This document shows, piece by piece, positions 36,018-50,428 of a stretch of DNA of 64,000 nt. The stretch is from an uncultured Dysosmobacter sp. (GTDB lineage: Bacteria; Bacillota; Clostridia; Oscillospirales; Oscillospiraceae). The position numbers and the translations under genes are program-made. The stretch lies in the NCBI GenBank assembly GCA_934563745.1, contig CAKTHE010000001.1, positions 62,001 through 126,000 of the forward strand, written 5' to 3'. The notes beneath the pieces are model-generated. The model was not told where the DNA came from and made no database searches. It saw nothing but the letters and a program-made list of their open reading frames with translations. The first letter of the stretch is position 1; every line of letters starts with the position of its first letter.

Positions 36018-36379
36018 GGGGGTGTACCGGTTTCGACGGGGGTATGGAGGCAGGATCAGCGGGCGGCGGCGCCTGACCGCCTTAAAACGGGCACTTATAA
36101 ATTAAAGAACAACAACACTGTTGCTGTTGCTGCCTAATTAGGCAGCCGTCCGACCCGGAAGGACCGCGAGCCGGGAAGGGCGTCGTTGAGCGGTAAATGT
36201 GCGTACGGTAAGCTTTGCCCGTGCCACACATCATGAAGCTTACCTGACCTGTCGGCGTGTCGGCTTGCCGGCTGGAAGGGGAACACGGAGGGAAAGCCTC
36301 TGAAAATAACCGACTGCGCCCGGAGAAGGTCCTGTTAAAGTGCTTTCGGACGGGGGTTCAACTCCCCCCACCTCCACCA
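36018..36379 (+). ncRNA. ssrA: Transfer-messenger RNA (tmRNA)
   Basis: The 5' end GGGGGTGTACCGGTTTCGAC and the 3' end GTTCAACTCCCCCCACCTCC plus ACCA form the alanyl-tRNA-like domain; GGGGGTG pairs with CACCTCC. The internal reading frame most likely encodes GTYKLKNNNTVAVAA (36090-36134, stop 36135-36137), ending in the usual hydrophobic degradation signal. The resume codon is my estimate. The CCA is encoded. All sequence beyond it is phage-like, so the 3' end appears to be the prophage attachment site. Confidence 0.95.
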
Positions 36380-36486: not shown

Positions 36487-36717
36487 TTAGGGTGGTCGAG
36501 ATTCCTCGGCAATGCTCTTCCAGTCGATTCTCTTTCCGCAATCGGGGCAGAACGAAAAGCGAGTCAAATCTGTGCTGTGCCGCCGATCGGCGTACTGCTT
36601 AAGCGTAAAAACCTTCGCATAGAGGCTCTCGCAGCTACAAAGCACGGGGTCGTCCCGCAAACTGCGGTTATATTCCTTCTGGTCTTCAATGTGATTCTTG
36701 AGCTCGTCCAAGGTCAC
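36487..36717 (-). CDS. Small phage zinc-binding protein
   Basis: A 76-residue frame starting at GTG. Cysteines in LCSCESLY and FCPDCGKRIDW suggest a zinc ribbon. The GTG has no ribosome site. The same frame stays open upstream to ATA at 36760-36762 (M/I-DCYIGILHRSEYSSLV...), which stands 8 bases after a strong AAGGAGG, so the real protein may be about 15 residues longer with a non-standard start. It lies directly behind structured repeat A. Function unknown. Confidence 0.6.
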   Translation of the reverse strand: MTLDELKNHIEDQKEYNRSLRDDPVLCSCESLYAKVFTLKQYADRRHSTDLTRFSFCPDCGKRIDWKSIAEESRPP

Positions 36718-36783
36718 GAGAGAGGAATACTCGGACCGATGAAGGATTCCAATATAGCAGTCTATAAGTCATTCCTCCTTAAA

Positions 36784-36871
36784 CTATCCTACGGGGCTCC
36801 TGGGTGGCCCGTATCGCGTTTTAGGTCTGGGGTCCTGGTGTTTATACTCCCAGATTTTGGACGCGATACGG
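36784..36871 (-). repeat. Structured intergenic repeat, copy A
   Basis: One of three copies (A here, B at 40670, C at 62741) sharing a core with CCTGGTGTTTATACTCC and CGTATCGCGTT. In A the core is enclosed by a perfect 11-base stem, CCGTATCGCGT (36809-36819) with ACGCGATACGG (36861-36871). It sits between the stop of the 294-residue gene and the ribosome site of the next gene. Confidence 0.75.
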
Positions 36872-37815: not shown

Positions 37816-37876
37816 ATTTTATCGTATTTAGTAAGTTTCGTATGCTGACAAAGCGCTCGAGGATTTACTGAAATTA
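37816..37876 (-). promoter_or_regulatory. Promoter/operator repeat, copy 1
   Basis: Minus-strand sequence containing CATACGAAACTTACTAAA and a -10-like TAAAAT, 50 bases before the 294-residue gene. The same block occurs at 41680, 42704 and 43290 (minus) and as a shorter copy at 43369 (plus). Confidence 0.7.
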
Positions 37877-39713: not shown

Positions 39714-39905
39714 CTACTTGGCGAGAATGTCTTCGGGCTTGCACTCAAGCGCCTTCGCCAGTTTCACGGCGGTCTTGAGCGCAATATTCTCAGGGTTGAT
39801 CTTGCCCGTCTCGATCTGGTGAATCTTCATATAGTTAACGCCGCTCAACGCCGCCAGACCCTTCAAGGTCAGGCCTTTCGCCTGGCGCAGTTCTCTTAAT
39901 CCCAT
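39714..39905 (-). CDS. XRE-family transcriptional regulator
   Basis: 63 residues, a complete Cro/C1-type helix-turn-helix domain: GLRELRQAKGLTLKGLAALS then VNYMKIHQIETGKINPE and TAVKLAKALECKPEDILA. The start follows GGAGGATTCCG. A protein this size is typically a phage Cro-like or accessory repressor. It lies directly downstream of diversified target 2. Confidence 0.88.
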   Translation of the reverse strand: MGLRELRQAKGLTLKGLAALSGVNYMKIHQIETGKINPENIALKTAVKLAKALECKPEDILAK

Positions 39906-39926: not shown

Positions 39927-39950
39927 TCCCCAGCCCTGACGGGCTGGGGA
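39927..39950 (-). other. Hairpin downstream of variable repeat 2
   Basis: On the coding strand, TCCCCAGCCC-GTCA-GGGCTGGGGA: a 10-base perfect stem with a four-base loop, 15 bases beyond the stop of target 2. Characterised retroelements need a similar small GC hairpin just downstream of the variable repeat for efficient target use. It could also serve as a terminator, although no T-run follows. Confidence 0.7.
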
Positions 39951-39961
39951 TTCTTAGATCG

Positions 39962-40098
39962 CAGATTAAACACAGAAGCCGAAGGCCACGCCATTCGAGC
40001 CGCTGGCGTCGGAGTTGGCGGCGTCGCCGTTGCTGTAGACAAAACAGAAGCTGGTAGAGCTGCTCGCACAAGGAGAACGCTCCCACCAGCTGTTCGCA
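39962..40098 (-). repeat. Variable repeat 2 (VR2) of the retroelement
   Basis: Aligns without gaps to the template repeat at 47588-47710. Sixteen bases differ, all at template adenines of the coding strand, affecting 11 of 15 Asn codons (to Ser, Cys, Phe, Tyr, Asp, Ala, Gly). One A/C difference at the outer edge (39962 end distal, near 40098) probably lies past the repeat. The 3' side shares the stretch GGCTTCTGTGTTTAATCTG with VR1 but not with the template, as expected of the initiation site. Confidence 0.93.
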
Positions 40099-40652
40099 GC
40101 CTCGCCCTCGTCGCCGAGAGCCTTGATACGGTTCCCGCGGCGCTTGTAGTACGCCATCTGCTCACCGCGGTCAGGGTCGTTCTCGGTCCAGTCATGCGGG
40201 CCGAAGACCTCCATCTCAGAAGCAAGCCAGAGGAGATCGCTCTCGCCGTCGATCACTCTCGGCTTGATCGCAGCCCGCATATCGTCGGGCAGCAAAGCCA
40301 GAATCTCGGTATTGAGGACCTTGCGGAGCTTGCTCGCCTTCCAGCCGCCTGCGTTCGTGTAGTCGTCATTCATGGGGTAGGTATCGCGCAAGCAATCCTT
40401 GAGCATGAACATGACATCACCGTCAAAGGGCTTGTCTTTCTCAACGACGACCAGGGTAATCGGCTCGCCGGTCTTGAGCTCGTCGTGAATCTCGTCGCCG
40501 ATCTCGAAGTGCTTAGACGCCTCGCGCAGGTCAGACCACTCCTTGATCTGCGCCCAGGTGATGAACTCCTTGACCTGCGAGACCAGGCCGACCGTGCGAG
40601 GCTTGTCGGGTTCCAGGAATGGCTTTCCGCAATGCGGGCAATACTTATACAT
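39966..40652 (-). CDS. Diversified protein 2: zinc-ribbon protein with variable C-type-lectin-like C-terminus
   Basis: 228 residues. It opens with a zinc-ribbon half (YKYCPHCGKPFLEPD), has no signal peptide or membrane segment, and continues into a domain with ITLVVVEKDK, MFMLKDCLRDTYPM, LLWLASEMEVFG, then the variable tail NSWWERSP...GVAFGFCV. WWERSP and FGFCV match the C-terminal domain of the tail target at 48.2 kb, a DUF6273-like lectin/formylglycine-enzyme-type fold common in retroelement targets. It lies outside the structural modules, between a SprT-like gene and an XRE regulator. The ligand is unknown and is probably intracellular. Confidence 0.9.
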   Translation of the reverse strand: MYKYCPHCGKPFLEPDKPRTVGLVSQVKEFITWAQIKEWSDLREASKHFEIGDEIHDELKTGEPITLVVVEKDKPFDGDVMFMLKDCLRDTYPMNDDYTNAGGWKASKLRKVLNTEILALLPDDMRAAIKPRVIDGESDLLWLASEMEVFGPHDWTENDPDRGEQMAYYKRRGNRIKALGDEGEAANSWWERSPCASSSTSFCFVYSNGDAANSDASGSNGVAFGFCV

Positions 40653-40669
40653 GATTCATATCCTCCTTA

Positions 40670-40752
40670 AATTATCCTACGGGGCTCCTGGGCGAGCCGT
40701 ATCGCGTTCTACACCCAGGGGCCTGGTGTTTATACTCCCAGATTTTGGACTC
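40670..40752 (-). repeat. Structured intergenic repeat, copy B
   Basis: Same core as copy A (CCTGGTGTTTATACTCC preceded by CCGTATCGCGTT). Here the enclosing stem is different: CCTGGGCGAG with CTCGCCTGGG (two G-T pairs), using the sequence at the end of the upstream gene. It lies directly before the ribosome site of diversified protein 2. Confidence 0.72.
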
Positions 40753-40759
40753 GCCTGGG

Positions 40760-41626
40760 TTAGTCCAGGCGGTCCATGGTGACGTTGCAATGCCCGCAAA
40801 TCAGGCTGAGCTCGGAAGTGGTACGAACCTCCTGACCGCAGACGGGGCAGACGTAGCGGTGGGCCTTCTCACGCTCGGCCTTGGCCTTAGCCTTCGGCAT
40901 GACGCGGGCGAAGCGGACGCTCAGGTCGACACCAGCCTCGGCGAGCTTGGCCTTAAAGGCGTCGGTCGGAGAGGTATGCGCGTAACCGTTGGCGCGGTCA
41001 TACTCGACGATCAGGTCGCGGCTCTCGCACTCGGCCTTGAAGGTCTTGTTGTGGTAGCGGCCATTCTGACAGGTGTCGGCGATCTCGTTTTCGGTGCAGA
41101 AGAGGTGAACCATCTCGTGCAGCAGGGTCGCGCAGGTGGATTCCTTCGGGCGGTTGATGAACTCGGCGCCGAGGTTGATCTCATACATGCCCTCGTTCTC
41201 GGATTTCCAGATCTTCTTGGTGGAGCAATGGCCGTACGCTTTCGGCGTGGTCTGAACGGTGATGACCGGACGAGGCAGCTTGCCTTCGAAGTAGATCGCG
41301 TTGAGCTTGTCGAAGATCGTCTCGAGGGCGGTGATCGTCTCACTCATTTTCATCGGTTCGGGCTTGTCCTCCGTAGCAGGGGCCTCGGTCTTCGGCTCTT
41401 CAACCTGGGGCTTGGCGTTGGTCTGCTCTTCGGCGGCAGGCTCTTCGCAGAGGCGCCAGCGGCGATCATAGGAAGCCGCGGCCATGCCGCTCGGCTCAGC
41501 GGCGGGCTCGTCCACGGGAACGGAGAAGATTTTGCGGTTCTCTTCATCGATCTTGACGACCAGACGGACCTCGTTGGTCTCCTTGTTGACGATCTTCTTG
41601 TTCAGCACGGTAGTCATGTCCTTCAT
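40760..41626 (-). CDS. SprT-like zinc metallopeptidase
   Basis: 288 residues from ATG at 41626 (AGGAGGATATAAAA). An acidic, Pro/Glu-rich region (residues about 40-95) precedes the SprT-like domain: LNAIYFEGKLPRPVITVQTT, YEINLGAEF, then CATLLHEMVHLFC with HExxH zinc ligands and HNKTFKAECESRDL with the third ligand. The C-terminus is a four-cysteine zinc ribbon (YVCPVCGQEVRTT, LICGHCN). SprT/Spartan proteins cleave proteins bound to DNA. Here it is the gene immediately before diversified protein 2, under the same putative promoter. Confidence 0.87.
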   Translation of the reverse strand: MKDMTTVLNKKIVNKETNEVRLVVKIDEENRKIFSVPVDEPAAEPSGMAAASYDRRWRLCEEPAAEEQTNAKPQVEEPKTEAPATEDKPEPMKMSETITALETIFDKLNAIYFEGKLPRPVITVQTTPKAYGHCSTKKIWKSENEGMYEINLGAEFINRPKESTCATLLHEMVHLFCTENEIADTCQNGRYHNKTFKAECESRDLIVEYDRANGYAHTSPTDAFKAKLAEAGVDLSVRFARVMPKAKAKAEREKAHRYVCPVCGQEVRTTSELSLICGHCNVTMDRLD

Positions 41627-41679: not shown

Positions 41680-41740
41680 ATTTTATCGTGTTTAGTAAGT
41701 TTCGTATGCTGACAAAGCGCTCGGGGTTTTACTGAAATTA
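41680..41740 (-). promoter_or_regulatory. Promoter/operator repeat, copy 2
   Basis: Minus strand: TTGTCAGCATACGAAACTT, then ACTAAACACGATAAAAT with the -10-like TAAAAT at 41685-41680. It lies 54 bases before the SprT-like gene and would drive that gene and diversified protein 2. No good -35 stands at the usual spacing, so an activator may be needed. Confidence 0.7.
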
Positions 41741-43505: not shown

Positions 43506-43694
43506 ATGGCCTACTCGGACGCCCAGCGAGAAGCGACGGAACGCTACAACCGCAAGACCTACGAGCGCATTGAGCTGAAGGTGAAAAAGGGCCAGAAGGA
43601 CTATATTCAAAAAGCTGCGGCGAGTGTCGGCAAGAGCGTCAACCGGTTTATCCTGGACCTGGTAGCGAAGGAGACCGGCAACGATGAAATATGA
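43506..43694 (+). CDS. Ribbon-helix-helix (Arc-like) DNA-binding protein
   Basis: 62 residues. The pattern YERIELKVKKGQKDYIQKAA and then ASVGKSVNRFILDLVAKETG is the beta-strand/helix/helix of Arc/MetJ-type repressors. It is one of only two phage genes here on the plus strand and is expressed from promoter copy 5. It is the best candidate for the regulator of the dispersed promoter repeats. Start after GAAAGGACGGTGGACGC. Confidence 0.8.
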   Translation: MAYSDAQREATERYNRKTYERIELKVKKGQKDYIQKAAASVGKSVNRFILDLVAKETGNDEI

Positions 43695-43895: not shown

Positions 43896-43932
43896 GAGCC
43901 CTCCCGCGGACGAATCCGCAGGAGGGCTTTTC
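43896..43932. terminator. Bidirectional terminator
   Basis: AAAAAGAGCCCTCC.GCGGA / TCCGC.GGAGGGCTTTT, between the convergent RHH unit and the lysis module. Confidence 0.85.
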
Positions 43933-45290: not shown

Positions 45291-45595
45291 TCCAAATCTC
45301 CTTTCTCAGCCTGCGTGTGGTCGGTTGGCAGCGACAGGAATTTCGCTTTCAGGTCGTCCATGACGCCGTTGACGCCCAGGCTGTGATACTGCGTCCAGCA
45401 GTTGATGAAATTTTCGCGAGCATAGATCGGGGCGTACCCCCGTTCGCTCCACTTGTTATAGTCGGCGATCATCTGCGCCCTGAGGAGTGCCTGTACGCCG
45501 AGCCGAACGCCCTTGATCTGGGCGAACAGCAAACGAAAAACGCCGACAAGCAGGCCGCCGGCGCCGAGAAGGCTGAGGACCTGGTAAAGCGTCAT
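45287..45595 (-). CDS. Phage membrane-anchored protein of the lysis region
   Basis: 102 residues. A hydrophobic N-terminus (LYQVLSLLGAGGLLVGVFRL) suggests a membrane anchor; the rest is helical (IADYNKWSERGYAPIYAREN). It overlaps the holin start by four bases. Proteins of this type recur next to holins in Clostridial phages; the role is unproven. Confidence 0.65.
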   Translation of the reverse strand: MTLYQVLSLLGAGGLLVGVFRLLFAQIKGVRLGVQALLRAQMIADYNKWSERGYAPIYARENFINCWTQYHSLGVNGVMDDLKAKFLSLPTDHTQAEKGDLE

Positions 45596-46203
45596 TCAGC
45601 TACCTCCGTCCAGCCATAAACGCCAGGCTCCCAGACGTTGTTGTCCACGTTAGAGGTCCAGTGCTTATCAGAGTGAGAGACCTTTGCGCCCTTGGCGTAG
45701 GCGTCATGCGCGCCCTGGGGCTGAGACCAAACCGGCCACTCTTCGGCAGGGTCGGCGGTAGCTTTCCATAAGCTGGAGGTGGCATCGGGAGTCCAGTCCG
45801 CCTGCGAGGTATGATCTTGCAGGCAACGGTAAAGTTGGCCGCCATATTTGCGAATATTGCCAGTCTTATAGGCGATCGGGTAGGCCCAGGCAGCAAACAG
45901 GTCAACGTGCTCATTGGCGGTCGTGTCATCGACCGCGCCGCTTTCCGCAGCGTTTACGAAGAGAATCGACTGCACGGCCACGGCTTCGGTAGTGAGCGCG
46001 CCCGCGTCCACGAAGGCAAGCGTAACGCGCTCCAGGTCGTCCGTGGTGGACTTCCCCTCAAGGCCATACACTTTACCTTCCCAGACGATACCGTGAGCCC
46101 TGGACTCGCCACAGAGTCCCCAGGAGCCATTCTCAAGCGGCTCGACAAAGTTCGGTTGCTCGGTCAGCCCCAGAGTAGTCCCATCTTTTACGATTCGGTA
46201 CAT
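45592..46203 (-). CDS. Phage protein with chitin-binding-like (CBM5/12) C-terminus
   Basis: 203 residues from ATG at 46203 (GGAGGGCAACTA). The C-terminal 45 residues (AYAKGAKVSHSDKHWTSNVD and NNVWEPGVYGWTEV) match the aromatic pattern of the CBM5/12 carbohydrate-binding module, often found in phage tail or baseplate accessory proteins. A second module around YGGQLYRCLQDHTSQADW is similar. The gene start lies inside the 3' end of the reverse transcriptase gene (71-base overlap). It may help host-surface binding. Confidence 0.78.
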   Translation of the reverse strand: MYRIVKDGTTLGLTEQPNFVEPLENGSWGLCGESRAHGIVWEGKVYGLEGKSTTDDLERVTLAFVDAGALTTEAVAVQSILFVNAAESGAVDDTTANEHVDLFAAWAYPIAYKTGNIRKYGGQLYRCLQDHTSQADWTPDATSSLWKATADPAEEWPVWSQPQGAHDAYAKGAKVSHSDKHWTSNVDNNVWEPGVYGWTEVAE

Positions 46204-47350
46204 TAGTTGCCCTCCATTTCGTTTTATCGTTCGGGTGGAACCCGAAAAGATGCTTGAAAAATAGATCGATACGCGCGACGGCCTTGAAGCTGTCGCCTCG
46301 TCGCATGTGTCCCTTGAAGCTGTCATAGGCGGTGCGAATATCCTCGAGCGAGAACTCGCCGGCCTCGTACCACTTGCGGAACTTGAAGAGCTTTCTCTTC
46401 ATCGCGCGCATGGACGCACGGCTCATTTTGCGAAGGACTCGGCCGGTCTCCGTCAAGATGAACTTCGTTTTGAGGAATACAATGCCGCGTGTGATCGGGC
46501 GGATTTTGGTCTTGCGCAGGTTGAGCGTGATACCCAACTCGGCGCAGACCTCTTTGATTCTTTCGAGGCAATACTCCAAATAGTGAATATCCTCATGAAT
46601 CAAATAGCCGTCGTCCATATAGCGGCCGTAGCCCTTGATTTGAAGCTCTTCTTTGATAATGTGGTCGAGCTTGTTCGGAAGCATGAGGGCCGCGTTTTGC
46701 GAGATTTGACTGCCAAGGCCGTACCCGACCGGGCCAAAGTTTTCAAGGAAGTCGTTTGCGAGCTTTCTGGTCTTCGGGTCGTGAACACGACGGGCGAGCT
46801 CGTTCTTGACGGTCCAGTGCTGCGCCGAGCCGAAGTAGTCCTTGAAGTCGAAGACGAGAATACCACCTTTGAGACCGTGCTTGCGGAAATGTCGCTGCAA
46901 ATGGCAGTTAAGACGGTCCATCGCGAAGTCGATGCCTTTACCTTTGATGCTCGCGGCGTTGTCATAGATAAAAGCTGGCTGAAAAACCTTTGTGATAACC
47001 TGGTCGCAGAGATTTCTCTGAACGGCGCGCTCCGTGATATGGACGCTGCGAATATGGCGCCATTTTCCGCGATCGTAAATGTCAAACTCGTAGAAGCCTC
47101 GGCTCTTATATGTTCCAGCCATCAACTGTGCATGGGTCTTTGCGGTATTCGAGATGATGTTCATTCGGTAGCGCTGCGTCGAGCATTTCCAGTTGACATT
47201 CTTGCAGCAGGTTTGTCCTGCTTGAAATAGATTGCTAAAAGAGAAGGCCTCCTCAAAGCTGCCGCAAGCAATGCTGCGCGCAAGCCTTTTGGCTTGCCTC
47301 CTCTGGCAGCGGCGTTGATACCTAAGCTCGTGCCGCTCTTCGCTTGTCAT
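46133..47350 (-). CDS. Reverse transcriptase of the diversity-generating retroelement
   Basis: 405 residues. Palm motifs: VFDFKDYF at 166-173 (first catalytic Asp), GYGLGSQISQNAALML at about 209-224 (LGSQISQ replaces the retroviral QG motif and is typical of retroelement RTs of this class), and YGRYMDDGYLIHED with YMDD at 244-247. A thumb-like basic C-terminus follows. It makes cDNA from the template-repeat RNA with errors at adenines. The gene order target-Avd-template-RT is canonical. Start after GGAGACAATTTAATCT. It contains no maturase or endonuclease domain. Confidence 0.96.
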   Translation of the reverse strand: MTSEERHELRYQRRCQRRQAKRLARSIACGSFEEAFSFSNLFQAGQTCCKNVNWKCSTQRYRMNIISNTAKTHAQLMAGTYKSRGFYEFDIYDRGKWRHIRSVHITERAVQRNLCDQVITKVFQPAFIYDNAASIKGKGIDFAMDRLNCHLQRHFRKHGLKGGILVFDFKDYFGSAQHWTVKNELARRVHDPKTRKLANDFLENFGPVGYGLGSQISQNAALMLPNKLDHIIKEELQIKGYGRYMDDGYLIHEDIHYLEYCLERIKEVCAELGITLNLRKTKIRPITRGIVFLKTKFILTETGRVLRKMSRASMRAMKRKLFKFRKWYEAGEFSLEDIRTAYDSFKGHMRRGDSFKAVARIDLFFKHLFGFHPNDKTKWRATNVPNRKRWDYSGADRATELCRAA

Positions 47351-47587
47351 AGATTAAATTGTCTCCTTCGTACAGTGGTATTTATAGAGCGCGTGTTATA
47401 ACTGCGTAGCGGCGCCGTCCATGAAACTCGGTACCCGCGCGCTTCCGAGCCATGCAAGCAGCGTCCAGACGGCCGCATCGACGGAGTGTTTTTGGCCCGT
47501 CGGCCAGGGCTGCAAGTCCTCCTTCCGTATCGGTCCTGCTTTCGCTCTAAAGAGAGCTACTCGGTCTCACCAGGAAATAAACGGAAT
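47351..47587 (-). ncRNA. Spacer RNA between template repeat and RT
   Basis: 237 non-coding bases between the template and the RT start on the minus strand. In characterised retroelements the RNA downstream of the template folds, binds RT and Avd and primes cDNA synthesis; this stretch is in the right place and of suitable length. Its sequence includes several GC-rich complementary segments, but I have not folded it. Confidence 0.65.
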
Positions 47588-47710
47588 CCGAAGGCCACGC
47601 CATTCGAGTTGCTGGCGTTGTTGTTGTTGGCGTTGCCGTTGCTGTTGACATTACAGAAGTTGGTAGAGTTGCTCGCATTAGGAGAACGCTCCCACCAGTT
47701 GTTCGCAGAC
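47588..47710 (-). repeat. Template repeat (TR) of the retroelement
   Basis: About 123 bases. Read in the target frame it encodes SANNWWERSPNASNSTNF then CNVNSNGNANNNNASNSN, with 15 AAC/AAT codons. Asn codons with adenine in the first two positions can become 15 amino acids without forming stops, the hallmark of these templates. It matches VR1 (48217-48356) and VR2 (39962-40098) except at adenines. The flanking ORF reading through it is a shadow; the TR is expected to act as RNA. Confidence 0.96.
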
Positions 47711-47737: not shown

Positions 47738-48166
47738 TTATTCGGGAAGATTTTTATATCGGGCGCGATCTGAGCGCCTGATACCGGAAATGAGTTTGGC
47801 CTCCTCGATGATAAGCTCGCCCCAAACCGTGAAGGCGTTGTCAAAGCCTTTGAAGTTTTCGGGATTCTTCCAGAGGACGCCCGCGAGAAGGCCCAGTTGC
47901 CGGTCGAGGGCTTGAAGTTTAGCGTTTGCCGCGATCAAGTGATCTCGCCGGAGCTGGGCCTCATGTTGGTTGATCGGGAAAATGCTGTTCGCCATCGTGA
48001 CTTCATCGTAGACGGCGCTTGCATGGTCCATGATCTTCTGCGTCAGGTAGAAGGTGTACCTCTTCGGGACCTTGAGACATTGCTCGAGAGTATGGACTTG
48101 CAGCTTTCTCGCGGTCTCAACGAACTGCGCAGAGCTGGCGCCGCGTTTGGATTTGTAGACTGACAT
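47738..48166 (-). CDS. Avd-like accessory variability determinant
   Basis: 142 residues from the second ATG (better spacing to AAAGGA; an ATG two codons upstream is possible). The sequence is almost entirely helical and basic: VETARKLQVHTLEQCLKVPK, RYTFYLTQKIMDHASAVYDE, then RRDHLIAANAKLQALDRQLG. The four-helix pattern and position between the target and the template repeat match Avd, which forms a pentameric barrel that binds the RT and template RNA and is required for mutagenic cDNA synthesis. Confidence 0.88.
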   Translation of the reverse strand: MSVYKSKRGASSAQFVETARKLQVHTLEQCLKVPKRYTFYLTQKIMDHASAVYDEVTMANSIFPINQHEAQLRRDHLIAANAKLQALDRQLGLLAGVLWKNPENFKGFDNAFTVWGELIIEEAKLISGIRRSDRARYKNLPE

Positions 48167-48182
48167 AAGCATTTTCCTTTCC

Positions 48183-48200
48183 GCGGCCCTTACGGGCCGC
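48183..48200 (-). other. Hairpin downstream of variable repeat 1
   Basis: On the coding strand GCGGCCC-GTAA-GGGCCGC: a 7-base stem with a GNRA-type loop, 20 bases beyond the stop of target 1. It is placed like the hairpin after VR2 and like the hairpin required in characterised systems. Confidence 0.75.
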
Positions 48201-48216
48201 AGATATTTGTAGATTA

Positions 48217-48356
48217 CAGATTAAACACAGAAGCCGAAGGCCACGCCAACCGAGGCGCTGGCGGTGTAGTAGCTGGCGTTGCCGTCGCTGTAGACAAAAC
48301 AGAAGATGGTAGAGTTGCTCGCATAAGGAGAACGCTCCCACCAGGTGTACGCAGAC
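48217..48356 (-). repeat. Variable repeat 1 (VR1) of the retroelement
   Basis: Gap-free match to the template repeat with 16 differences, all at coding-strand adenines of the template; 13 of 15 Asn codons are changed (Tyr, Thr, Ile, Phe, Asp, Ser, Ala, Val). The 3' boundary GGCTTCTGTGTTTAATCTG is shared with VR2 and differs from the template there (GGATTCCGTTTATTT). Confidence 0.96.
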
Positions 48357-50428
48357 CTGCTTACATTCTTAACTTTGCTGTTGCCGGCTTTGTAGTACGC
48401 ATATTGCGTGCCTTCGCCAGAAACCGAGTAAGAGGTAGAGCCGAAAATCTCAACCTCAGACAGGAGAAAGAGCTTATCGGCGGTCGTCTTGATCGTTGTA
48501 CTCTGGCTGCCGGCCGAGGAGAGCTTATTGACCTGCTTAACGACACTCTGCCAGGCGCTTGTGAGCTGACTGAGATAGGTCGCCATGTTGCTCTTACGCA
48601 TAGCGCAGTTTTCCCAACCGCCACTATTCGTGTTAGAGCTATTCATTTGCGCCTTACCTGCCAGGCAATCAGCCATCTGCAAGGTCATGCCGGCTTTACC
48701 GGTCGCGGTCGCAGAGCCGTACGCAGTGGAGCTTGTCAACGTATCATGGTTGAAGCCCATAACCTTAAAGGCGTACGAGGTACCGTTGATCGCGATATTG
48801 ATCGAGTCGCCGACGCTGATTTTGTAGTGGCTCGCGCCGTCGTCGATATAGACCGTGCTTGTCGTGTTCGTGATCGCGCTGTTCCGAGAGATCGCCTCAG
48901 CATAGAGACTCATCTTCTCGGCGGTCAGGCTCGAAATGCCGGTCGTATAGTTCACGCCGGACTTCGGGCTCGTGCTCGCAGTCGGCTTATAGGACAGGGT
49001 CACGCTCGCGCTCTGGCCGCTGGTCGTGATCGAAACCGCCTGCTGCGCGGTGTCCGTGCCGTTCGTGCTCTTGACGGTCCAGGTGCCGGCGCTCGGGACG
49101 GTAAACGTGTAGCTGCCGGTCGTGTTCGGCGCGGTGAGTGTGGTCGCGCCATTCGAGCAAGTACAGGTCGAGCCCGAGGGGTACGTGACCGCGATCGTTG
49201 CGGCGAAGTAGGTCAGCGTGACGGTGTACTGCTTGACCTCCGTGACGGAGACGCTCGTGGTTGCCGTCTGGCCGTTCAGCGTAGCGGTAATATTCCACAC
49301 GCCATAGGACGGAATCTGGAAGGTCCATTTTCCGCTTACCTCTGTTCCCACGAGAGAGGTCTCACCGTCCGTGGCGGTCACCGTGGAGCCTGTGGGGGCG
49401 GTCACGACGATTGCGGGATAGAAGCCGCCGCCACTCTGCGCGACTGGATTCAGGAGCTCATACTGCGTGCCGTTGTACTGGAAGAGATAGACGTAGCCGG
49501 CCTTGAGAAGTCCAGCCGCGACGGCCTCGCCCTTGTAGTAGATCGACTTCGCGCCAGTGCTGTTGACGTTCAATGTGGGCGCGGCCGCGGTGTTGTCGTA
49601 GGAGAACTTCACGCCTACGATCGCGCCCGTGACGAGCGTAAAGCCCGAGAGCGTCACGGCCTTTGCCTTCGTTGCTGCGGCGGTCGAGCAAGCGCCGTAG
49701 CCACGGCCCAGCTTGGCAGCGGCCGAGAGTACGGCCTCAGCCTGCGCAAGACCGCCCGTGCCGGTGAAGACAGGGAGATTCGCAGTCGAGCCGAGCTTGC
49801 CGTCGCTCGTCAGGTTGCCGTGCTTGTGGGACGTAGCCGCAGCGCCTACCTGAGCTGCAGTCACGCCATGCGGGTTCTGCTTGTTCGCGGCGTGCTCGTC
49901 AATAGCGCCCTGCGCGTCGTCGGCCGCGTTTTGCGCGTTATCCGCGGCAGTCTGCGCATTGCTTGCGGCCGTACCCGCGGCGTTGGCGGTACTCTGCGCG
50001 CCCGAAGCGGCGGTACCGGCTACGTTAGCGGCGCTCTGCGCGGTAGCGGCTGCGCTCTGCGCGGTAGCGGCTGCGCTCTTCGCCGCGGCCGCGTCGCTGA
50101 CGCCCTGATCGGCCTGCTTTTTCGCCTCCTGGATATTCTTCTGCAAGGCGTCGAAGTCCTTGTTGGTGAAGTTGCGGGCGATCGTGGTACCAGAGGGCCA
50201 GGCTTTTGCCGTTCCCTCTACGCCGCGCGTACAACCGGAAAGGGAGTCCGTTGTCTTTGCGGTGTAGAGAATCGTTTCACCGTCTTCATCCGTGCCGATT
50301 GTCGCGAGGTTCGGGGCGTCGGGGAAGGCGGAAATATCGGTGACAGGAATTGTAGTGTCGCCTGCGCCGATGCCATCGGCGAGAGCGACCTGCGGAGAGA
50401 AGGGAATGCCCTTATACATAGTCTCCAA
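48221..50428 (-). CDS. Diversified protein 1: tail fibre / receptor-binding protein with variable C-terminus
   Basis: 735 residues, TTG start nine bases after AGGAGG. The N-terminal 80 residues form a tail-attachment-like beta domain. Residues about 90-200 are an Ala-rich heptad coiled coil (AATAQSAANVAGTAASGAQS) that would trimerise. A PHGVTAAQVGA fibre motif, then Ig-like modules (TVTLTYFAATIAVTYPSGST) follow. The last 190 residues are a DUF6273-like lectin fold ending in WWERSP...GVAFGFCV, containing VR1. It is downstream of the tail-tip gene, as expected of the adhesin that binds the host surface. Mutagenic homing would change its binding face. Confidence 0.93.
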   Translation of the reverse strand: METMYKGIPFSPQVALADGIGAGDTTIPVTDISAFPDAPNLATIGTDEDGETILYTAKTTDSLSGCTRGVEGTAKAWPSGTTIARNFTNKDFDALQKNIQEAKKQADQGVSDAAAAKSAAATAQSAAATAQSAANVAGTAASGAQSTANAAGTAASNAQTAADNAQNAADDAQGAIDEHAANKQNPHGVTAAQVGAAATSHKHGNLTSDGKLGSTANLPVFTGTGGLAQAEAVLSAAAKLGRGYGACSTAAATKAKAVTLSGFTLVTGAIVGVKFSYDNTAAAPTLNVNSTGAKSIYYKGEAVAAGLLKAGYVYLFQYNGTQYELLNPVAQSGGGFYPAIVVTAPTGSTVTATDGETSLVGTEVSGKWTFQIPSYGVWNITATLNGQTATTSVSVTEVKQYTVTLTYFAATIAVTYPSGSTCTCSNGATTLTAPNTTGSYTFTVPSAGTWTVKSTNGTDTAQQAVSITTSGQSASVTLSYKPTASTSPKSGVNYTTGISSLTAEKMSLYAEAISRNSAITNTTSTVYIDDGASHYKISVGDSINIAINGTSYAFKVMGFNHDTLTSSTAYGSATATGKAGMTLQMADCLAGKAQMNSSNTNSGGWENCAMRKSNMATYLSQLTSAWQSVVKQVNKLSSAGSQSTTIKTTADKLFLLSEVEIFGSTSYSVSGEGTQYAYYKAGNSKVKNVSRSAYTWWERSPYASNSTIFCFVYSDGNASYYTASASVGVAFGFCV

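What the first reader, a model, noticed from the sequence alone, without database searches (positions are those of the whole stretch)
39962..40652. Second, remote diversified target that is not a structural protein
A second variable repeat lies about 7.6 kb from the template, outside the tail module. It also has 16 adenine-only differences and differs from VR1, so it was generated independently. The protein begins with a zinc ribbon (CPHC), has no signal peptide or membrane segment, and lies among early/accessory genes between a SprT-like protease and an XRE regulator. Known phage targets are mostly tail adhesins; diversifying a probably intracellular zinc-ribbon protein suggests recognition of a changing intracellular or competitor molecule. 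This role is inference and, as far as I know, not described for this arrangement.
Basis: partly seen in the sequence, partly recalled or inferred. Interest (0 to 1): 0.93.

Follow-up and report, generated by a model that had tools for sequence, protein, structure and literature searches.

The report
Phage's second self-mutating intracellular binder
In this prophage a small gene 7.6 kb from the mutation template carries the same adenine-only, template-matched changes as the phage's tail-region gene; its protein is predicted to have a lectin fold, likely stays inside the cell and would bind some changing host or rival-phage molecule, and the same arrangement is seen in 15 other phage or prophage records.

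Summary
The 228-aa gene 39966-40652(-) ends in a second variable repeat (VR2): 125 nt with 17 differences from the template (TR), all at TR adenines, followed by a GC hairpin of the kind DGR targets need. VR2 is hypervariable: a homologue with 1 of 184 body differences has 17 of 44 in the VR. VR1 and VR2 vary independently. The domain is DUF6273 with a predicted C-type-lectin fold. The 'zinc ribbon' is a single CPxCG knuckle. It is not a one-off: 17 small remote DUF6273 genes in 16 phage/prophage records match a TR of the same record or genome with (nearly) A-only changes; in 12 of the 16 a replication, recombination or DNA-methyltransferase gene lies within 3 kb. They are an old lineage, not copies of each phage's tail gene. 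Remote, probably non-structural second DGR targets are already in print (PMC8008677, PMC12629997), so this is a new variant: a recurrent small DUF6273 target. That it meets an intracellular ligand, most likely a host defence protein, is inference.

The parts
39966..40652 (-). second DGR target: 228-aa protein, CPHCG N-terminus, DUF6273 domain (residues 79-223)
   Evidence: PF19789 E 3.3e-14, 53.5 bits against a cut-off of 23.5; hypervariable VR with a conserved body
39975..40099 (-). VR2
   Evidence: 17 differences from TR in 125 nt, all at TR adenines
39927..39950 (-). hairpin after VR2: 10-bp stem, GTCA loop, 15 nt after the stop codon
   Evidence: 0 of 300 shuffles as good
47584..47708 (-). 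template repeat (TR)
   Evidence: identical in L001 over the 97 nt compared
47343..47574 (-). RT-2 RNA family match, between TR and RT
   Evidence: Rfam RF03077, 163.1 bits, E 1.3e-39
46133..47350 (-). DGR-type reverse transcriptase (YMDD visible in the sequence)
   Evidence: phrog_1423 E 1.1e-78; RVT_1 E 2e-11
47738..48172 (-). Avd-like accessory gene
   Evidence: phrog_3206 'Avd protein of DGR' E 3.3e-6; the best match, phrog_30516 (E 1.2e-17), has no function
48221..50428 (-). first target: 735-aa tail-module protein with DUF6273 at its C-terminus
   Evidence: PF19789 E 8.5e-19; tail role by position only
48230..48354 (-). VR1
   Evidence: 17 differences from TR, all at TR adenines
48183..48200 (-). 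hairpin after VR1: 7-bp stem, GTAA loop, 20 nt after the stop codon
   Evidence: 0 of 300 shuffles as good
40760..41626 (-). SprT-like gene upstream of the VR2 gene
   Evidence: PF10263 E 1.3e-9 (longer reading frame)
39718..39905 (-). XRE-type HTH gene downstream of VR2
   Evidence: HTH_3 E 1.4e-9
41680..41699 (-). 20-bp operator-like site in front of the SprT and VR2 genes; copies at 37816(-), 42705(-), 43291(-), 43378(+)
   Evidence: 5 matches, 0.00 expected; 6 in L001; function inferred
43897..43928 (-). terminator-like hairpin (14 pairs) between the lysis genes and the VR2 cassette
   Evidence: consensus scan, (19 found, mean 10.9 in shuffles); function inferred
43506..43694 (+). small TacA1-antitoxin-like gene, divergent from the cassette
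   Evidence: PF08681 E 1.6e-6
36018..36379 (+). tmRNA at which the prophage ends
   Evidence: RF00023 E 2.4e-60; the frame just beyond reads the C-terminus of L001's serine integrase

Best explanation
The 228-aa gene at 39966-40652 carries a second variable repeat that matches the prophage's own retroelement template except at adenines, and its product is predicted to be a cytosolic C-type-lectin-fold binder that likely recognises a changing intracellular molecule, most likely a host defence protein. Shown: TR, RT, Avd-like gene, two VRs with A-only differences, a hairpin after each, hypervariability between close homologues, a conserved body, recurrence in 16 records. Inferred: the RT copies TR RNA with errors at adenines and the cDNA replaces VR2 as it replaces VR1; the protein is made from the cassette's own promoters during infection or lysogeny; its varied face binds and blocks a host protein that differs between strains, while the tail target follows the receptor outside. 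The place of relatives beside replication and DNA-methyltransferase genes is why I choose counter-defence.
For: A-only TR/VR2 differences; target hairpin (need for it shown in BPP-1, PMC3240598 passages); VR hypervariable, body under purifying selection, dN 0.096 / dS 0.657; no hydrophobic segment in 12 of 12 small proteins; C-type-lectin fold; 17 such genes in 16 records, 12 of 16 with a replication, recombination or methyltransferase gene within 3 kb; small targets are an old lineage; VR1 and VR2 do not co-vary, so a shared ligand is not indicated; a terminator-like hairpin and own repeated sites set the cassette apart from the late genes.
Against: No expression, localisation or binding data. 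In the window itself the neighbours are SprT-like and XRE genes, no methyltransferase or known defence/counter-defence gene was seen, and PADLOC gave nothing for the VR2 protein and 6 cassette genes. The cassette lies on the same strand as, and after, the late genes. The small-target neighbourhoods of G037 and G069 are uninformative. Pooled VR1/VR2 pairs share more bases than composition predicts (140 against 112.7). Neighbourhood is weak evidence of function; the set was gathered with the small protein as query.
Confidence: 0.42

Rival explanations
1. It works in the lysogen against rival phages: a superinfection-exclusion factor whose varied face binds an incoming phage's protein inside the cell.
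For: In L001 the cassette lies between the lysis genes and the serine integrase/repressor, a usual place for lysogenic-conversion genes (recalled); own repeated sites and a divergent regulator-like gene.
Against: In most relatives the gene sits in replication or methyltransferase surroundings, where lytic early expression is the usual reading.
Confidence: 0.2
2. It is a virion or released protein after all: a small lectin carried on the particle or set free at lysis that binds surface glycans or receptors.
For: C-type-lectin fold; authors of PMC10743442 propose host binding for their single-domain DUF6273 target2 proteins (passages); a weak match to a Hoc-like decoration family (phrog_10993, E 0.001); same strand as the late genes.
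Against: No signal-like or membrane segment in 12 of 12; no virion-docking domain seen; not next to structural genes; old lineage separate from tail domains; terminator-like hairpin before the cassette.
Confidence: 0.2
3. Its varied face tunes binding to a replication or repair partner (host or phage) rather than to a defence protein.
For: Directly after DNA polymerase genes in Fontainebleau and G024 and between primase and helicase in G003.
Against: Replication partners are conserved and would not call for endless variation (inference); the window lacks such neighbours.
Confidence: 0.08
4. VR2 is a passive or decaying copy kept by gene conversion, without a function of its own.
For: One record (G013) has such a 75-aa remnant beside an integrase, without a hairpin.
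Against: Purifying selection on the body, kept hairpin, 17 genes in 16 records, separate old lineage.
Confidence: 0.04

Closest known systems
Quimbyvirus second DGR target, ORF 80/84 (Benler 2021, PMC8008677; section 17 read)
   Same: one DGR with a tail-side VR and a second VR in a C-type-lectin protein away from structural genes, read as non-structural, near methyltransferases and a nuclease
   Different: Bacteroides-type phage, target on the opposite strand, RT in three frames; whether its target is DUF6273 was not tested here; no recurrent family or target hairpin is described in that section
Four gut prophage species with a second VR distal to the RT (Nature 2025, PMC12629997; passages)
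   Different: target family is not named in the passages seen; here the gene family, its hairpin, lineage and variability are described
Roseburia phage Shimadzu orf43 and Faecalibacterium phages Lelie/CP11 small targets (PMC11792537; passages)
   Same: large plus small targets on one DGR; both DUF6273 in Lelie/CP11. Shimadzu orf43 has DUF6273-type similarity and an A-only VR here
   Different: function left open there; Lelie/CP11 were not examined here
Tentaclin phages nd4/nd12 target2 (PMC10743442; passages)
   Same: single-domain DUF6273 target with C-type-lectin fold and 3' VR
   Different: called part of the DGR cassette, not remote; receptor binding proposed
DGR-diversified conflict-system proteins of multicellular bacteria (PMC10907252; search listing and start of abstract only)
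   Same: diversified proteins in putative conflict systems
   Different: cellular, not phage

Membership tests
DGR target (variable protein) | TR with VR differing (almost) only at TR adenines | tested here: met
   17 of 17 differences at adenines
DGR target (variable protein) | RT of the DGR type and Avd-like gene in the element | tested here: met
   phrog_1423 E 1.1e-78; phrog_3206 E 3.3e-6
DGR target (variable protein) | IMH at the VR 3' end distinct from the TR's | tested here: met
   VR1 and VR2 share a 3' end that differs from TR; the definition is recalled
DGR target (variable protein) | GC-rich hairpin shortly after the VR | tested here: met
   10-bp stem, 15 nt after the stop
DGR target (variable protein) | hairpin loop 5'-GRNA (consensus in PMC3240598, passages) | tested here: not met
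   loops are GTCA and GTAA; BPP-1-type consensus, not a general requirement
DGR target (variable protein) | VR in a C-type-lectin fold | tested here: met
DGR target (variable protein) | retrohoming activity in cells | not testable with these tools
   only variability between homologues seen
DUF6273 (PF19789) | score above the family cut-off | tested here: met
   53.5 against 23.5 bits
Zinc-ribbon protein | two CxxC knuckles | tested here: not met
   one knuckle; no second CxxC in residues 21-180 of any of 60 full-length homologues
Phage tail receptor-binding protein | coded in the tail module with a virion-docking N-terminus | tested here: not met
   8 kb from the tail gene, short N-terminus, no tail family match; virion proteomics not available
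Quimbyvirus-type remote target near counter-defence genes | second VR far from RT and structural genes | tested here: met
   7,609 bp from TR
Quimbyvirus-type remote target near counter-defence genes | methyltransferase or other counter-defence genes beside it | tested here: inconclusive
   none seen in the window cassette; present near the gene in Shimadzu, Dulem 34, G038, G289, G274, G249

The most novel reading that the evidence does not exclude
Phages of Clostridia-type gut bacteria carry an old, dedicated family of adaptive intracellular binders, in effect phage 'antibodies' coded in the replication or accessory module, and one mutagenic template evolves two things at once: which receptor the tail grips outside and which host defence protein is neutralised inside.
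Probability: 0.38. Interest if true: 0.92.

Novelty: new variant of a known kind. Interest (0 to 1): 0.72.

Why it matters
DGRs are mostly understood as tools for retargeting phage tails. A recurrent second target without tail or secretion features means that phages also diversify a likely intracellular binder. If its ligand is a defence protein, this would be targeted evolution of counter-defence, and a natural source of small variable lectin-fold binders. It is directly testable in cultured pairs: Roseburia phage Shimadzu and Acutalibacter phage Fontainebleau both carry such a gene.

Tried and rejected
Search of the window's own genome for more VRs: none is held. PADLOC and NCBIfam: nothing for the VR2 protein or the cassette genes scanned, apart from a weak sub-threshold match of the SprT gene to a ribosomal-protein model. 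PDB by sequence: no credible relative, best E 0.071. Shared ligand of VR1 and VR2: pooled over 11 phages they share 140 A-site bases against 112.7 expected from composition, which looked like linkage; for the one TR shared by two phages the within-phage pairs (19 and 16 of 35 sites) are no closer than the cross-phage pairs (17 and 16), and by residues the own pair ranks 30 and 10 of 64; I read the excess as mutation bias or site preference, untested. Small targets as recent copies of each phage's tail domain: rejected; the nearest tree row is the own partner for 1 of 28 rows and of the same kind for 30 of 33. One clade of all small targets is neither shown nor clearly rejected (p-AU 0.051; 0.255 without the long Shimadzu and Fontainebleau rows).

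Rows dropped or negative. G013 (75-aa remnant, 88/20/7, no hairpin) is left out of the 17 genes. G010 (two genes), G018, G274B and G069_147 gave no TR match in the pieces held; G009 gave no ORF in my script. For G069, G289 and G073 the TR lies on another contig of the same assembly, so one phage is assumed, not shown. Fontainebleau has 18 other mismatches because its VR begins inside my window. FP_Taranis was seen with its tail-side target only; in MT837512 the target lies about 1 kb from its TR, and MT835543 gave 82/11/22 with a wrongly placed gene end, so none of these is counted. The hairpin control includes the VR genes of its own loci. G069's first gene is not in the tree.

Full report
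What is there. The right part of the window is a prophage: capsid (Phage_cap_E) and tape-measure (PhageMin_Tail) genes, a DGR cassette, a CHAP lysin, then a cassette of small genes of about 7 kb that ends at a tmRNA. The frame just beyond the tmRNA reads the C-terminus of the serine integrase of the close relative L001, so I place the prophage end there (inference). The DGR has an RT (phrog_1423, E 1.1e-78), an Avd-like gene, the Rfam RT-2 RNA and a TR at 47584-47708. VR1 ends a 735-aa tail-module protein; VR2 ends the 228-aa protein 7.6 kb from the TR.

VR2 is a real target. All 17 differences between TR and VR2 over 125 nt are at TR adenines. Both VRs share a 3' end that differs from the TR's. 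Each is followed by a GC hairpin with its own stem sequence, 15 and 20 nt after the stop codon. In BPP-1 such a hairpin is needed for efficient retrohoming and its stem sequence is free (PMC3240598, passages); the GTCA and GTAA loops here depart from the published GRNA. Hairpins follow 22 of 24 VRs in 12 phages (both misses are G013) and 5 of 6 further small genes. Under a strict rule (stem of 7 or more, 5 or more GC, within 27 nt) 11 of 17 small genes and 11 of 11 partner genes pass (G013 left out; my count) against 32 of 366 ORF ends, a control that includes the VR genes of those loci.

It varies. Homologue P0001 differs at 1 of 184 body residues and 17 of 44 VR residues; over seven close sequences 18 of 20 TR codons with adenine at position 1 or 2 vary, against 3 of 23 others. 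Between window and L001 the body has dN 0.096 and dS 0.657: a conserved protein with a changing face. The TR of window and L001 is identical over the 97 nt compared. VR1 and VR2 of one phage are no more alike than those of different phages with the same TR.

The arrangement recurs. I tested small DUF6273 genes lying away from the RT; numbers are matches/adenine changes/other. In 115-nt windows: window 98/17/0, L001 98/17/0, Roseburia phage Shimadzu 96/16/3, Dulem virus 34 94/16/5, Acutalibacter phage Fontainebleau 78/19/18 (its VR begins inside the window); G003 95/19/1, G005 90/20/5, G024 104/10/1, G037 101/8/6, G038 95/16/4, G011 98/14/3. In 103-nt windows: G274 92/10/1, G249 75/25/3, G069 87/12/4 and 82/16/5 (two genes), G289 87/12/4, G073 86/17/0. 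That is 17 genes in 16 records; window and L001 are near kin, as are Dulem 34, G038, G274 and G289, so there are fewer independent lineages. G013 is a 75-aa remnant; G010 (two genes), G018, G274B and G069_147 did not match; G009 was not evaluable. The set was gathered with the small protein as query, so it gives no frequency: of 38 IMG/VR records searched 25 had an RT match, and 7 of these carried an intact remote small gene with a TR match.

Neighbours. Fontainebleau: directly after DNA polymerase I. G024: directly after DNA polymerase A, ThyX two genes on. G003: nearest called genes a PriCT-1 primase and a D5-type helicase, with ThyX, YqaJ and ERF near. Shimadzu: between a DNA methyltransferase and Erf. 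Dulem 34, G038 and G289: directly after an adenine or N6/N4 methyltransferase, a Rep-like protein soon after. G005 and G274: a Rep-like protein is the next called gene on that strand. G073: a Rep-like protein within 3 kb; G249: an N6/N4 methyltransferase within 3 kb. G011: between amidase/3D-domain genes and a helicase. These are 12 of 16. G069 has a PAPS-reductase-type gene, G037 unknown small genes and a PemK-type gene, window and L001 SprT-like and XRE genes. L066, for which no TR was at hand, lies close after a D12 methyltransferase.

Control of the window cassette (inference from sequence). A 20-bp site occurs five times, all in the cassette, with 0.00 expected, among them one before the SprT and VR2 genes and one before a divergent TacA1-like gene, and six times in L001. 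A 14-pair terminator-like hairpin lies between the lysis genes and the cassette. So VR2 is probably not transcribed with the tail genes.

Ancestry. On a tree of 33 rows made without the VR, the small/tail label needs three changes against 10.9 in shuffles (0 of 500 as low); the nearest row is of the same kind for 30 of 33 and the phage's own partner for 1 of 28. Small targets are thus old, though a single origin is not shown (p-AU 0.051).

Known or new. Benler 2021 reported for Quimbyvirus a second, probably non-structural target near methyltransferases and a nuclease (PMC8008677, section 17 read). The 2025 Nature paper reports four prophage species with a distal second VR near counter-defence genes (PMC12629997, passages). 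PMC11792537 reports small DUF6273 targets in Faecalibacterium phages and mentions Shimadzu (passages). PMC10743442 models DUF6273 as a C-type lectin (passages). What seven paper searches (open PMC papers only) did not show me is the recognition of one recurrent small DUF6273 target in replication or accessory modules with its own hairpin. Hence: new variant of a known kind.

How it most likely works. Shown: template, enzyme, two diversified genes, target signals, variability between homologues. Inferred: mutagenic retrohoming to VR2, cytosolic place, own promoters, and an intracellular ligand that differs between hosts, most likely a defence protein. The choice of ligand rests on neighbourhood in relatives and on the need for constant change; it is untested.

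Noticed in passing
window 37816, 41680, 42705, 43291 (-) and 43378 (+); L001 six sites: A 20-bp operator-like site repeated in front of the cassette genes and a divergent TacA1-like gene; looks like a small private regulon.
   Followed up: partly
window 40661-40753 and 36773-36865: A 93-nt intergenic leader in two copies (87% alike), one before the VR2 gene, one before a small ORF with a CPDCG motif (36487-36717).
   Followed up: no
proteins P0005, P0006, P0007, P0010: Homologues whose frame shifts inside the VR and runs on past the normal end; real indels at the mutated site or assembly errors there.
   Followed up: no
protein P0076: The start of the downstream XRE protein fused in frame to the VR2 protein's body, on an 840-bp contig; probably a chimera.
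   Followed up: no
G069 C225 (L131): Two small DUF6273 targets about 2.4 kb apart, both matching the same TR at adenines.
   Followed up: partly
G007 and G012; G027 67.8-71.2 kb: Two DGR-type RT matches in one record each; in G027 six DUF6273 matches clustered next to the RT.
   Followed up: no
model of window 39966-40652: Closest solved fold is the N-terminal part of the Thomasclavelia ramosa IgA peptidase (9qa6), an enzyme of a gut bacterium.
   Followed up: no
window 45592-46326: A CBM5/12 carbohydrate-binding protein directly after, and overlapping in frame calls with, the RT gene.
   Followed up: no
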